NCBI RefSeq assembly: GCF_000687835.1
Contig: NZ_JHYB01000005.1
Coordinates: 1-64,000 of the forward strand
Reading direction: 5' to 3'
DNA from: Haploplasma modicum ATCC 29102
Lineage (GTDB): Bacteria; Bacillota_I; Bacilli_A; Acholeplasmatales; Acholeplasmataceae
DNA length: 64,000 bases
Shown: in pieces, positions 8,168 to 12,919 of the stretch
How the letters are laid out: every line of letters begins with the position of its first letter
Numbering within the stretch: position 1 is the first letter of the stretch
Notes under the pieces: model-generated
Seen by the model: the letters and a program-made list of their open reading frames with translations, nothing else
What the model was told of the DNA's origin: nothing
Databases searched by the model: none
Translations under genes and position numbers: made by a program

Positions 8168-8857
8168 TTAAAAACCATCTGTTGTTATAAAGTCAACATT
8201 CATGGATACCATCTTATCAAACACTTCTTTTTTATTAACTGTCCATACATTAATAGGTATCTTATTATCTTTTAAGTATTTTACATTGTCTTTTGTCGCA
8301 ATCGGAAACTGAATATCATAACCGAGTTTGTATCTTTCAAGTATTAAAAAATTTATGTTACGATGTTTGCTAGTTAAATATTGCAAGTTAATTTTTTTAT
8401 TATACTTTCTTATTAAAACTAGATTTACAAGCCTAAAGCTAATAATTGTTATATCTTTATACTCATTTAAGTATAGATAGGATAAAAGTTCAGTAATTTG
8501 TTGCTCATTTAATTCTGGCTTAATTTCAATTATTGTGTGTTTGTTATTTTTTTTCATTAAATCTAAAACTTCAGAAAGTAGCGGAATTTTTAGTTCATAT
8601 TTTTCATTTCTCTTATTATAAAGATCAATATCTTTTAACTCATTATATGTCTTATCTTTAATAACAACATCTACTTTAGCAAGTCTACCTGTTGTATCAT
8701 CATGAAAAACAACGTACTTATTATCTTTTGTTAAATGAATATCTAATTCTACTCCATAAAAATAATCTTGTTTTGCCGCAAGCAAGAAAGATCCTATTGT
8801 ATTTTCTGTTGCAATCTTACTATATCCTCTATGAGCAATTACTTTTGTTTCATTCAT
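8168..8857 (-). CDS. Glycerophosphodiester phosphodiesterase
   Basis: A GDPD-family enzyme of 229 residues that hydrolyses glycerophosphodiesters to glycerol-3-phosphate and an alcohol. Catalytic signatures are HRGYSKIATENT (first His, about residue 9), ELDIHLTKD (metal-binding E and D), FHDDTTGRL (second His) and IIEIKPE. There is no signal peptide, so it acts in the cytoplasm. It overlaps the upstream XRE regulator by four bases (ATGA), so the two form an operon and the regulator may respond to lipid or phosphodiester supply; that is inference. Confidence 0.9.
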   Translation of the reverse strand: MNETKVIAHRGYSKIATENTIGSFLLAAKQDYFYGVELDIHLTKDNKYVVFHDDTTGRLAKVDVVIKDKTYNELKDIDLYNKRNEKYELKIPLLSEVLDLMKKNNKHTIIEIKPELNEQQITELLSYLYLNEYKDITIISFRLVNLVLIRKYNKKINLQYLTSKHRNINFLILERYKLGYDIQFPIATKDNVKYLKDNKIPINVWTVNKKEVFDKMVSMNVDFITTDGF

Positions 8858-9450
8858 TTTTTATATCCCTTTCTTTTAATTATAAAAATATAATATATGA
8901 GTACTACTAAAAATATATAAAAAGGTATTGCTGAAATATATACAATATATGATTTTAAATCACTGAAAAGTAAATCAAGTGATAACGCTAATGTCCAAAC
9001 AAATATTGTCATATAAATATAAATCAAAATTATTTTCTTCCATATAACATTAAATATAAACATTGAAAGACTAAATAGAGGTATTGCAAATATAAATAAA
9101 TACGCTGTTTTAATCTTAAAATCTAAAACTCTAAAGATAAAGTATAAAACTGATGCTATTAAAAACAAAATCATCGAATACATAATAGCTTTAACTTGAT
9201 TGTGTCTTAAAATTTTAGGTCTAATCTTATGCTCATTAAGTAAATCATCAACAGAAACATTAAAAAAGACAGACAGTTCCTTTAATACATAAATATCTGG
9301 AACTCCCTCTTTTCTTTCCCATTTAGAAATTGACTTATCAGAGTAATTAAGTTTTTCAGCTAACTCTAGCTGGGTTAGATTCATTTTTTTACGGTAGTAG
9401 GCAATATTATTACCTATATTGTTCGTCAACATCTCTTTTTCATTTATCAT
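8854..9450 (-). CDS. XRE-family HTH regulator with C-terminal membrane domain
   Basis: The N-terminal 70 residues form an XRE/Cro HTH (RKKMNLTQLELAEKLNYSD, then KSISKWERKEGVPD, the common SKWE.G..P form). About four hydrophobic helices follow in residues 90-195, so this is probably a membrane-anchored DNA-binding protein. The ATG lies only about five bases after a TATAAT (9456-9461), so the mRNA may be nearly leaderless. A CTACT-GTG-AGTAG inverted repeat at 9475-9493 overlaps the expected -35 and could be an autoregulatory operator. The gene is translationally coupled to the GDPD. Ligand unknown. Confidence 0.85.
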   Translation of the reverse strand: MINEKEMLTNNIGNNIAYYRKKMNLTQLELAEKLNYSDKSISKWERKEGVPDIYVLKELSVFFNVSVDDLLNEHKIRPKILRHNQVKAIMYSMILFLIASVLYFIFRVLDFKIKTAYLFIFAIPLFSLSMFIFNVIWKKIILIYIYMTIFVWTLALSLDLLFSDLKSYIVYISAIPFYIFLVVLIYYIFIIKRKGYKK

Positions 9451-10177: not shown

Positions 10178-11542
10178 TTATATATCTTTTACTATTTCAG
10201 AAATAAATGAACTATTCAGCCAAAAGCAATGCTTTGTGTATTCAGTCATACCTGTTTTATTATCTGGAATCGGAAGCGTGTTTACATCATTAGCATTTCT
10301 AGCATGTGGCCTTACATGACAGACACTATTATCAGCCATTCCAGGGAAGTTTGAAAATTTTTTCCCACCTATTATGTCTTTAACAACATTACCATTTTTT
10401 ATTACTTCAACTGTCTTTGACCAAGCATCTTTAACTTCATTATTTAGTGTAGAGTTAGGCATATTCCAAAATTTTATTCCGGAAAAAATATAATCGTTAT
10501 TCACTTCTCTGAACACCACAAACATATACTTTGTTGTAGAAAACATTTCATATAATTCAGAATTATACCATTTTTCTTTGCTGATTTTAATAAAATCAAA
10601 AGAAGGAAAAGACATACTTTCTTTTATTGATCCATTTGAATTTATTCTTATTGTCTTAGGTATGATATTTGCTTTTATAAATTCATCTGTTTGTGCAACT
10701 TTACCCTTGATGTTTAACATTCTTGCAACAATTAATTCATTAACGTTTTTACTATTAGAGTTTATCCCAAATAATTTTTTTAGTTCTATAACGCTTTTTC
10801 CTCTATATTTTTTTATTTTATTTTCTATAATCTGTTCAAAAGATATATTTTCATCAATATCAGTAATGATTCTCTCTGCACTACTATTTGAAACATGATT
10901 TCTTACTAATTGTGTCATATATGATGATTTCAGACTAAAAGCTCTTTGTTTTGCTCTAATATCAGAGAATGGTTGTTCTCTTTCTGATTTAGAATTTTCT
11001 CCTTTTGTACATGCACCTAAGTACATTGTGTCTGCTTCTGAAATTTCATGTGCCAAACCTAATTTTATTTTATTTATTATAGTATACCAATCATTTATTA
11101 TTATAGGAAGATCTTCTTTTGGAAATTTAAAAAGTAATTCATCAGTTATAAGAAAATCACTTTTGGGTTTGTTGTCCTCATATCTATACCAGACGATTTG
11201 AATCAACTTATTTTTAAACCAAAAATGGCTATCATAAAAGTCATTTTTATACTCTGTCATATAATTGATAATATTTAATACAAGCCTTTCTTTAGCTGAT
11301 AATGTACCGTTTTTATTAATTTTGTATGGTGTCATTTTTAACTCAATATTTAAATTTGCTATATCAAGTTCTGATTTAGTGTTTTTACCATACTTAAAAA
11401 CATCTTCTTCCATTATAAATCCAAATGATCCCTTATTATAGTTTTCAGATGAAATTTTATAATTATTTAATTCTCCAAAAGTTTTCCCTATCATATTTTC
11501 TACGATATTCCTAACTTCCGAAAATGTATAGTTTTTTTTCAA
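10178..11542 (-). CDS. Type II restriction endonuclease, Sau3AI/MutH family (predicted GATC)
   Basis: A 454-residue enzyme of Sau3AI type. The N-terminal MutH-like fold carries the catalytic D-X6-E-X-K motif: D60, E67 and K69 in SELDIANLNIELKMTP. A second, C-terminal MutH-like DNA-binding half (about 240-454) matches the two-domain layout of Sau3AI. It should cut unmethylated GATC. It is divergent from a cytosine-5 methyltransferase 129 bases away, the usual arrangement of a complete R-M system. No controller (C) protein is present. The intergenic region carries three GATC sites. Specificity is inferred from family and context. Confidence 0.85.
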   Translation of the reverse strand: MKKNYTFSEVRNIVENMIGKTFGELNNYKISSENYNKGSFGFIMEEDVFKYGKNTKSELDIANLNIELKMTPYKINKNGTLSAKERLVLNIINYMTEYKNDFYDSHFWFKNKLIQIVWYRYEDNKPKSDFLITDELLFKFPKEDLPIIINDWYTIINKIKLGLAHEISEADTMYLGACTKGENSKSEREQPFSDIRAKQRAFSLKSSYMTQLVRNHVSNSSAERIITDIDENISFEQIIENKIKKYRGKSVIELKKLFGINSNSKNVNELIVARMLNIKGKVAQTDEFIKANIIPKTIRINSNGSIKESMSFPSFDFIKISKEKWYNSELYEMFSTTKYMFVVFREVNNDYIFSGIKFWNMPNSTLNNEVKDAWSKTVEVIKNGNVVKDIIGGKKFSNFPGMADNSVCHVRPHARNANDVNTLPIPDNKTGMTEYTKHCFWLNSSFISEIVKDI

Positions 11543-11566
11543 GAAAACACCCCTATTTTATTTTTT

Positions 11567-11632
11567 TTTATAATAATTCATTGATCGATCTTGTCAAAAT
11601 ACTTGATCAATGATATACTTATATAGTATAAT
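11567..11632. promoter_or_regulatory. Overlapping divergent R-M promoters with GATC-bearing inverted repeats
   Basis: For the methyltransferase, TTGATC (11603-11608), 18 bases, then TATAAT (11627-11632). For the endonuclease on the minus strand, TTGACA (11592-11597), 16 bases, then TATTAT (11570-11575). A 9-bp inverted repeat, TCATTGATC (11578-11586) and GATCAATGA (11605-11613), places one arm in the endonuclease spacer and the other over the methyltransferase -35. GATC sites are at 11583, 11587 and 11605. The enzymes' own predicted target therefore lies in both promoters, suggesting control by methylation state or by a bound protein. Confidence 0.65.
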
Positions 11633-11671
11633 TTTATCATAATATGGTATAGATTTGAAAGGAACATTGAA

Positions 11672-12919
11672 ATGGAAAAGAAAGTAGTTGAATTATTTGC
11701 AGGTGTTGGTGGTTTTAGGGTAGGATTAAATAATGTTAAATTAGACAAAAATGGAAAAACTATCGAAAAAAATAATTTTAAGTTTGTATGGGCAAACCAA
11801 TGGGAACCTTCAACAAAAGTTCAGGATGCTTTCTTATGTTATAAAACTAGATTTTCTAAAGGGAACGATGATCATGAATTTTCAAATGAAGATATCTCAT
11901 TAGTTGATAAAAACTCTATTCCCGACTTTACTCTTCTAACTGGAGGATTTCCTTGTCAAGATTATAGTGTGGCTAGAAGTTTATCGAAAGAAAAAGGTAT
12001 CGAAGGTAAGAAAGGTGTTCTCTGGTGGCAGATTAATGATATTCTGATAAAAAAGAACCCACCATTTGTCCTATTAGAAAACGTAGATAGATTATTAAAA
12101 TCTCCTTCTACTCAGAGGGGTAGAGATTTTGGTGTTATGTTAAGATGTTTTCATGACAACAATTATTCGGTTGAGTGGAGAGTTATAAATGCGGCTGAGT
12201 ATGGTCATCCTCAAAAAAGGAAGAGGGTATACATCTTTGCATATAAAAATAATACAAGACACAGTGAAAGTATTATTGAGAATACTCCTGAAGAAATAAT
12301 ATTTCACAAAGGAATTTTTGCAATAAATTTTCCCATCTCTTCAAATGATAAGGTAACAAAAAAAGAAATTAAAGACTTTGTAGACCTGGTTGAGGTATCT
12401 AATGATTTTGAATTTAGTTTTGAGAATACAGGTTTTTTAAGAGATGGAATAATAACAACATCAAAGGTATATCCACATGAATCAAAAACAATTAATTTAA
12501 TAGATATATTAGAGTCTAATGTTATTGATTCCAGATATTTTTTATCAGAAGATAATATTAAAAAATTTGATTATTTAAAGGGGAATAAAAGAATTGATAG
12601 AATATCAAAAAGTGGGCATAAATATGTGTACTCTGAAGGTAAAATGACATATCCTGATGATCATAATAAACCTGGAAGAACAATGTTAACATCTGAAGGA
12701 ACTGTAAATAGAAGCACCCATGTTGTATTGGATATTATAACTGGAGAAAAAAGATTTATAACACCTATAGAAGCTGAAAGACTTAATGAATTCCCTGATA
12801 ACTGGACAGAAATGATGTCTGATAAACGTAGATATTTCATGATGGGTAATGCTCTTGTAACCGGAATTGTTAAAAAATTAGGTAAATCAATCAGTAAAAT
12901 AATTGAAAACGAGGAATAA
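11672..12919 (+). CDS. DNA (cytosine-5-)-methyltransferase, partner of the Sau3AI-like nuclease
   Basis: A 415-residue m5C methyltransferase. Motif I is VELFAGVGGF (SAM binding, residues 6-15), motif IV is TGGFPCQDYS with nucleophile C95, motif VI is LLENVDRLL, motif VIII lies near QKRKRVYIF, and IX-X (TPIEAERLNEFPDNW, GNALVTGIVKKLG) are near the C-terminus. It should methylate the cytosine of GATC to protect the host. It has no N-terminal HTH extension of the kind found in self-regulating methyltransferases such as M.SsoII. GAAAGGA precedes the ATG. The nuclease is divergent, and a terminator hairpin ends the gene. Confidence 0.9.
   Translation: MEKKVVELFAGVGGFRVGLNNVKLDKNGKTIEKNNFKFVWANQWEPSTKVQDAFLCYKTRFSKGNDDHEFSNEDISLVDKNSIPDFTLLTGGFPCQDYSVARSLSKEKGIEGKKGVLWWQINDILIKKNPPFVLLENVDRLLKSPSTQRGRDFGVMLRCFHDNNYSVEWRVINAAEYGHPQKRKRVYIFAYKNNTRHSESIIENTPEEIIFHKGIFAINFPISSNDKVTKKEIKDFVDLVEVSNDFEFSFENTGFLRDGIITTSKVYPHESKTINLIDILESNVIDSRYFLSEDNIKKFDYLKGNKRIDRISKSGHKYVYSEGKMTYPDDHNKPGRTMLTSEGTVNRSTHVVLDIITGEKRFITPIEAERLNEFPDNWTEMMSDKRRYFMMGNALVTGIVKKLGKSISKIIENEE

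What the first reader, a model, noticed from the sequence alone, without database searches (positions are those of the whole stretch)
11567..11632. R-M pair controlled from its own recognition sites?
The 129-base divergent region holds both promoters. A 9-bp inverted repeat (TCATTGATC/GATCAATGA) puts a GATC arm into the endonuclease -35/-10 spacer and another over the methyltransferase -35. A third GATC is in between. There is no C protein and the methyltransferase has no HTH extension. Methylation of own sites as a switch is known for CfrBI. Here it would balance the two genes.
Basis: partly seen in the sequence, partly recalled or inferred. Interest (0 to 1): 0.7.

Follow-up and report, generated by a model that had tools for sequence, protein, structure and literature searches.

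The report
Methylation-sensing promoter of Sau3AI-type systems
A bacterial DNA-cutting and DNA-protecting gene pair carries its own target sequence, GATC, on the start signal of the protecting gene, and the same placement recurs in distant relatives but not in control genes, so the protecting enzyme probably turns down its own gene once the DNA is marked.

Summary
The pair is a Sau3AI-family (GATC) restriction endonuclease (10178-11542, -) and a C5-cytosine methyltransferase (11672-12919, +). Three GATC sites lie in the 129-bp divergent region, the only such cluster in the window. The 9-bp inverted repeat is not beyond chance (P about 0.1). The best methyltransferase promoter (TTGTCA-N17-TATACT, 11591-11619) starts right after a GATC and shares its -35 with the endonuclease promoter (TTGACA-N16-TATTAT, 11597-11570). 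What recurs in relatives is a GATC on or abutting the methyltransferase -35: 31 of 38 non-redundant Bacillota Sau3AI systems, against about 0.9 in shuffles, 0 of 19 DpnII-type methyltransferases and 0 of 111 other genes. In tandem loci with separate promoters, GATC stays with the methyltransferase promoter. Bacteroidota relatives lack it and mostly have an XRE helix-turn-helix gene instead. Best explanation: CfrBI/LlaDII-like autoregulation, in which GATC methylation lowers methyltransferase transcription and, here, frees the overlapping endonuclease promoter. The principle is known. Its apparent family-wide use in Sau3AI systems I did not find described in the open-access papers searched. No step has been tested by experiment.

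The parts
10178..11542 (-). Sau3AI-family type II restriction endonuclease, 454 aa, TTG start, SD-like AGGGGTG at 11554-11548
   Evidence: NF040973 501 bits (cut-off 300), PF02976 MutH, Sau3AI structure 4pxg E 1e-73 over full length; sequence
11672..12919 (+). C5-cytosine DNA methyltransferase, 415 aa, motif I at residue 5, no N-terminal HTH; SD-like GAAAGGAA 11657-11664
   Evidence: PF00145 210.7 bits, TIGR00675 238 bits; FPCQ, ENV and QKRKR motifs read from the translation
11543..11671 (.). divergent promoter region, 129 bp
11583..11586 (.). GATC 1, in the spacer of the endonuclease promoter
   Evidence: promoter scan
11587..11590 (.). GATC 2, in the endonuclease spacer and abutting the -35 of the main methyltransferase promoter (type B position, shared with L009, L084, L087, L090, L113)
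11605..11608 (.). GATC 3, in the spacer of the main methyltransferase promoter and forming the end of a second -35 TTGATC (type A position)
11591..11619 (+). predicted main methyltransferase promoter TTGTCA-N17-TATACT with TG extension
   Evidence: highest-scoring M promoter by a GATC-blind scan
11603..11632 (+). second candidate methyltransferase promoter TTGATC-N18-TATAAT
11570..11597 (-). predicted endonuclease promoter TTGACA-N16-TATTAT; its -35 overlaps the main methyltransferase -35
11578..11613 (.). 9-bp inverted repeat TCATTGATC / GATCAATGA with 18-bp loop; probably incidental
   Evidence: P(>=9-bp arms in shuffles) = 0.096

Best explanation
The GATC sites in the divergent region act as a methylation sensor on the methyltransferase promoter. 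In an unmarked cell the M promoter is active and makes methyltransferase. As the enzyme methylates GATC on and beside the -35, RNA polymerase binds that promoter less well, so M falls to a maintenance level. When M is diluted and sites become hemi- or unmethylated, M rises again. Because the predicted R promoter shares its -35 with the M promoter, repression of M should free the R promoter, giving M first and R later without a C protein. Shown: gene identities, site positions, and recurrence of GATC at the M -35 beyond controls. Inferred: that these promoters are used, that M methylates GATC here, that methylation lowers transcription, and that R rises in turn.
For: Sau3AI-family REase next to a C5 MTase gives cognate site GATC. 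31 of 38 Bacillota clusters below 75% MTase identity carry TTGATC-N16..18-TAnnnT or GATC-TTnnnn-N16..18-TAnnnT before M; shuffles mean 0.78, max 5. Of all 256 tetramers in TTxxxx-N17-TAnnnT, GATC occurs in 22 clusters and the next best in 3; GATC is the most over-represented tetramer, 48 seen against 16.8 expected. A GATC-blind scan puts GATC at the -35 of the best M promoter in 23 of 23 scanned divergent clusters and in 31 of 38 overall, against 0 of 19 DpnII-type M genes and 0 of 111 other genes. In R>M tandem loci L095, L096, L097 and L100 the motif is at M, not at R. Seven of the gut Bacilli loci shown repeat it on three successive candidate M promoters. Systems with an upstream XRE gene lack it: XRE in 45 of 59 M>R loci, 0 of 48 divergent loci. 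The principle is established for other systems (PMC6237814; PMC12707154).
Against: No transcription, methylation or footprint data for this locus. Promoters are predicted in very AT-rich DNA. In the window the conserved-type site abuts rather than overlaps the main -35, where a methyl group may matter less. Seven of 38 clusters lack the feature (L099, L105, L121, L129, L132, L134, L135); two of these are near-operons and four are TGA=W lineages. Some promoter copies carry AATC instead (L007, L008, L012, L084, L107). Predicted R and M promoters overlap in only 10 of 23 scanned loci, so the reciprocal effect on R is the weakest step.
Confidence: 0.66

Rival explanations
1. Repression by binding: the methyltransferase (or the endonuclease) bound at GATC blocks RNA polymerase at the M promoter, and methylation itself is not the signal.
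For: Same sites and same feedback sign; binding regulation by methyltransferases is known (MspI, SsoII, PMC6237814), though those use separate operators and an additional DNA-binding domain.
Against: This M has no extra DNA-binding domain. Three sites would have to compete with all genomic GATC sites (142 in this 64 kb alone), and stable binding to product sites would be unusual. The endonuclease would cut unmethylated sites.
Confidence: 0.12
2. Direct coupling of R to methylation: GATC in the R promoter spacer is the main switch and methylation turns R on.
For: Two GATC lie in the predicted R spacer here.
Against: That placement is not the one that recurs; in R>M tandem loci with separate promoters the R upstream regions shown have no GATC while M keeps it.
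Confidence: 0.07
3. Promoter ancestry or chance: TTGATC is simply an inherited workable -35 and GATC has no regulatory role.
For: TTGATC matches the first four bases of TTGACA, and all systems share descent, so clusters are not fully independent.
Against: GATC persists while its position shifts between on and abutting the -35 (at least 6 changes on the tree) and flanks diverge; 0 of 111 other genes and 0 of 19 DpnII-type M promoters have it; own-genome TTGATC-N16-18-TATAAT is not enriched (5 against 6 in the reversed control).
Confidence: 0.1
4. The inverted repeat forms a cruciform or binds an unknown dimeric regulator that controls both genes.
For: A 9-bp perfect repeat centred near the overlapping -35s.
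Against: Arms of 9 bp or more in 9.6% of shuffles; no corresponding repeat noticed in relatives.
Confidence: 0.05

Closest known systems
CfrBI restriction-modification system (promoter methylation, divergent overlapping promoters)
   Same: Divergent R and M, overlapping promoters, own recognition site in the M promoter region, nearby inverted repeats (PMC12707154 section 10).
   Different: Different enzyme family and site; here three sites and two candidate M promoters; C5 rather than N4 methylation (from general knowledge); regulation not tested.
LlaDII (lactococcal; methyltransferase lowers its own expression)
   Same: Methylation of own sites in the M promoter affects M itself; fits the R>M tandem relatives where only M carries GATC.
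   Different: Other enzyme family and site; here R and M are divergent and their predicted promoters overlap.
AhdI M promoter
   Different: AhdI also has a C protein; none here.
Sau3AI of Staphylococcus aureus
   Same: Endonuclease homologous over its full length (4pxg); cytosine methylation of GATC is reported for Sau3AI-like systems (PMC10059834).
   Different: No regulation of it by promoter methylation was found in the papers searched.

Membership tests
Sau3AI family type II restriction-modification | Full-length Sau3AI-like endonuclease (MutH-like N-terminal plus C-terminal domain) | tested here: met
   NF040973 501 bits over 8-452; 4pxg over 6-454
Sau3AI family type II restriction-modification | Partner C5-cytosine methyltransferase | tested here: met
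   PF00145, TIGR00675
Sau3AI family type II restriction-modification | Recognition and methylation of GATC by these proteins | not testable with these tools
   Inferred from the family only
Promoter-methylation-controlled R-M (CfrBI/LlaDII kind) | Recognition site within the core M promoter | tested here: met
   GATC abuts the main predicted -35, lies in its spacer and forms part of a second -35; recurrent in 31 of 38 relatives
Promoter-methylation-controlled R-M (CfrBI/LlaDII kind) | Methylation of the site lowers M transcription | not testable with these tools
   Needs reporter or in vitro transcription
CfrBI-type switch | Overlapping divergent R and M promoters, mutually exclusive polymerase binding | tested here: inconclusive
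   Predicted promoters overlap by 7 bp here, at the -35 elements, but in only 10 of 23 loci scanned
C-protein-controlled R-M | Small HTH controller gene next to R or M | tested here: not met
   None between or directly beside the pair; no XRE match in any of 48 divergent loci
Regulatory methyltransferase (SsoII/MspI/EcoRII kind) | N-terminal HTH extension on M | tested here: not met
   Motif I begins at residue 5; no HTH hit

The most novel reading that the evidence does not exclude
A methylation-sensing -35 (GATC on or abutting the M promoter) is the ancestral and general control of Bacillota Sau3AI systems, used in place of the XRE controller found in Bacteroidota relatives. That would make it the most widespread known case of a control that a 2025 review (PMC12707154) calls apparently rarely used.
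Probability: 0.5. Interest if true: 0.62.

Novelty: new member of a known kind. Interest (0 to 1): 0.5.

Why it matters
Restriction-modification genes must protect before they cut, and much of the work on their control has centred on C proteins. If a whole widespread family senses its own mark through the -35 of the methyltransferase gene, then the simplest possible regulator (the site itself) is common rather than rare. It also gives a ready test set: dozens of natural promoters with the site on the -35, beside it, in several copies or lost, and a matched family (DpnII type, same site, adenine methylation) that lacks the design.

Tried and rejected
Inverted repeat as operator: not beyond chance, not seen in relatives. 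GATC in the R spacer as the conserved element: not recurrent. TTGATC promoters as a general habit of this genome: not enriched (0 of 111 genes). Same design in DpnII-type GATC systems: absent. Viral contig scan for the endonuclease: nothing. Empty-site comparison with neighbouring genomes: the three loci compared do not keep the left flank, so nothing learned. Original CfrBI and LlaDII papers not held. MAFFT alignment of seven promoters misplaces the window because of its repeated GATC; motif positions were used instead.

Full report
Identity. The gene at 10178-11542 (-) is a full-length Sau3AI-family endonuclease: NF040973 501 bits against a cut-off of 300, MutH domain, and the solved Sau3AI structure 4pxg at E 1e-73 over residues 6-454. 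The gene at 11672-12919 (+) is a C5-cytosine methyltransferase. Sau3AI-like systems act on GATC with cytosine methylation (PMC10059834), so GATC is the expected cognate site. There is no controller gene between or directly beside them, and M starts with motif I at residue 5, so it has no HTH extension. The only nearby HTH gene (8854-9450) is separated from R by another gene.

The region. The 129-bp gap holds GATC at 11583, 11587 and 11605. These are the only three GATC within 30 bp in the 64 kb, and three or more arise in 10 of 2000 dinucleotide shuffles of the gap. The 9-bp inverted repeat is real, but arms this long occur in 9.6% of shuffles. A simple promoter scan that does not look for GATC picks TTGTCA-N17-TATACT (11591-11619) for M and TTGACA-N16-TATTAT (11597-11570) for R, with the two -35 elements overlapping. 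So GATC 2 abuts the main M -35, GATC 1 and 2 lie in the R spacer, and GATC 3 lies in the main M spacer and in the second -35.

Relatives. I collected Sau3AI-type pairs from genome contigs, family/order/class/phylum searches and plasmids. In the first full set all 40 divergent gaps contained at least one GATC. In most cases it forms TTGATC-N17-TATAAT-like promoters (GATC as the last four bases of the M -35, type A) or GATC-TTGnnn-N17-TATAnT-like promoters (abutting it, type B). Gut Bacilli loci L005, L006, L010, L011, L018, L103 and L108 carry three GATC, each on or beside a candidate M-directed promoter.

Statistics. After reducing to clusters below 75% methyltransferase identity, 31 of 38 Bacillota clusters have type A or B; shuffles give a mean of 0.78 and a maximum of 5 in 300 trials. 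In TTxxxx-N17-TAnnnT, GATC occurs in 22 clusters and the next tetramer in 3; the spacing peaks at 17. With the GATC-blind scan the best M promoter has GATC on or against its -35 in 31 of 38 clusters, against a shuffle mean of 0.87, 0 of 19 DpnII-type methyltransferases from the same class, and 0 of 111 other genes from the same loci and the window. DpnII-type systems use the same site, so this is a matched control. TTGATC-N16-18-TATAAT is not enriched in the window's own genome (5 against 6 in the reversed control).

Which gene is the target. In tandem R>M loci with a separate M promoter (L095, L096, L097, L100) the TTGATC promoter stands before M and the R upstream regions have no GATC. The feature therefore follows M. 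In the Bacteroidota operons it is absent (0 of 9 M>R clusters have type A or B); 45 of 59 M>R loci instead have an XRE-like ORF, in the example examined directly before M, while 0 of 48 divergent loci do. On the methyltransferase tree the presence of the motif needs at least 7 changes and A versus B at least 6, with many weak branches, so the site has persisted while its exact position moved.

Mechanism. The best reading is a methylation sensor on the M promoter. For type A both cytosines of GATC lie inside the -35 hexamer, one of them opposite the third-position G, where the sigma factor reads the DNA (geometry from sequence; contact from general knowledge). For type B, as in the window's main promoter, they lie just upstream, so the size of the effect is less certain. 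Incorporating the recognition site into a strong met promoter so that modification lowers its activity is an established principle (PMC6237814). CfrBI adds reciprocal release of an overlapping R promoter (PMC12707154). The window's overlapping -35 elements fit that, but predicted overlap is seen in only 10 of 23 loci scanned, so reciprocal control is less certain than M autoregulation.

Limits. Everything here is sequence comparison. Clusters share ancestry. Seven clusters lack the feature: L099 and L105 are near-operons, L121 has a long gap without GATC near M, and L129, L132, L134, L135 are TGA=W lineages. Literature coverage is limited to open-access papers; the original CfrBI and LlaDII papers could not be read.

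Verdict. The kind of control is known; its apparent breadth in Sau3AI systems is the new part.

Noticed in passing
L172, L174, L175, L177, L178, L181, L183 (DpnII-type loci): The DpnM-like reading frames are about 350-365 aa rather than about 280, and the extra N-terminal part looks XRE-HTH-like by eye, suggesting a regulatory methyltransferase in DpnII-type systems.
   Followed up: no
L056:2433-2741 and other Bacteroidota loci: Bacteroidota Sau3AI operons carry a small XRE HTH gene directly before the methyltransferase (45 of 59 M>R loci have a matching ORF), a different control from the Bacillota loci.
   Followed up: partly
window's genome, contig 3: 44790-46620 (L001, L002): Two adjacent C5 methyltransferases beside a 354-aa ORF with an HNH-like stretch: probably a second restriction-modification system.
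   Followed up: no
window's genome, contig 3: 151909-152694 (L196): A 422-aa MethyltransfD12 adenine methyltransferase with an extra C-terminal part; site unknown, so GATC adenine methylation in this host is not excluded.
   Followed up: no
L007, L008, L012, L107, L084: At some promoter copies GATC is replaced by AATC at the same place, natural variants for testing the sensor.
   Followed up: no
L024: Methyltransferase and endonuclease appear fused in one reading frame in a Bacteroidota genome.
   Followed up: no
L120:3465-4894 (Mesomycoplasma hyorhinis): The Sau3AI-type endonuclease is annotated as two overlapping reading frames, probably broken, next to an intact methyltransferase gene.
   Followed up: no
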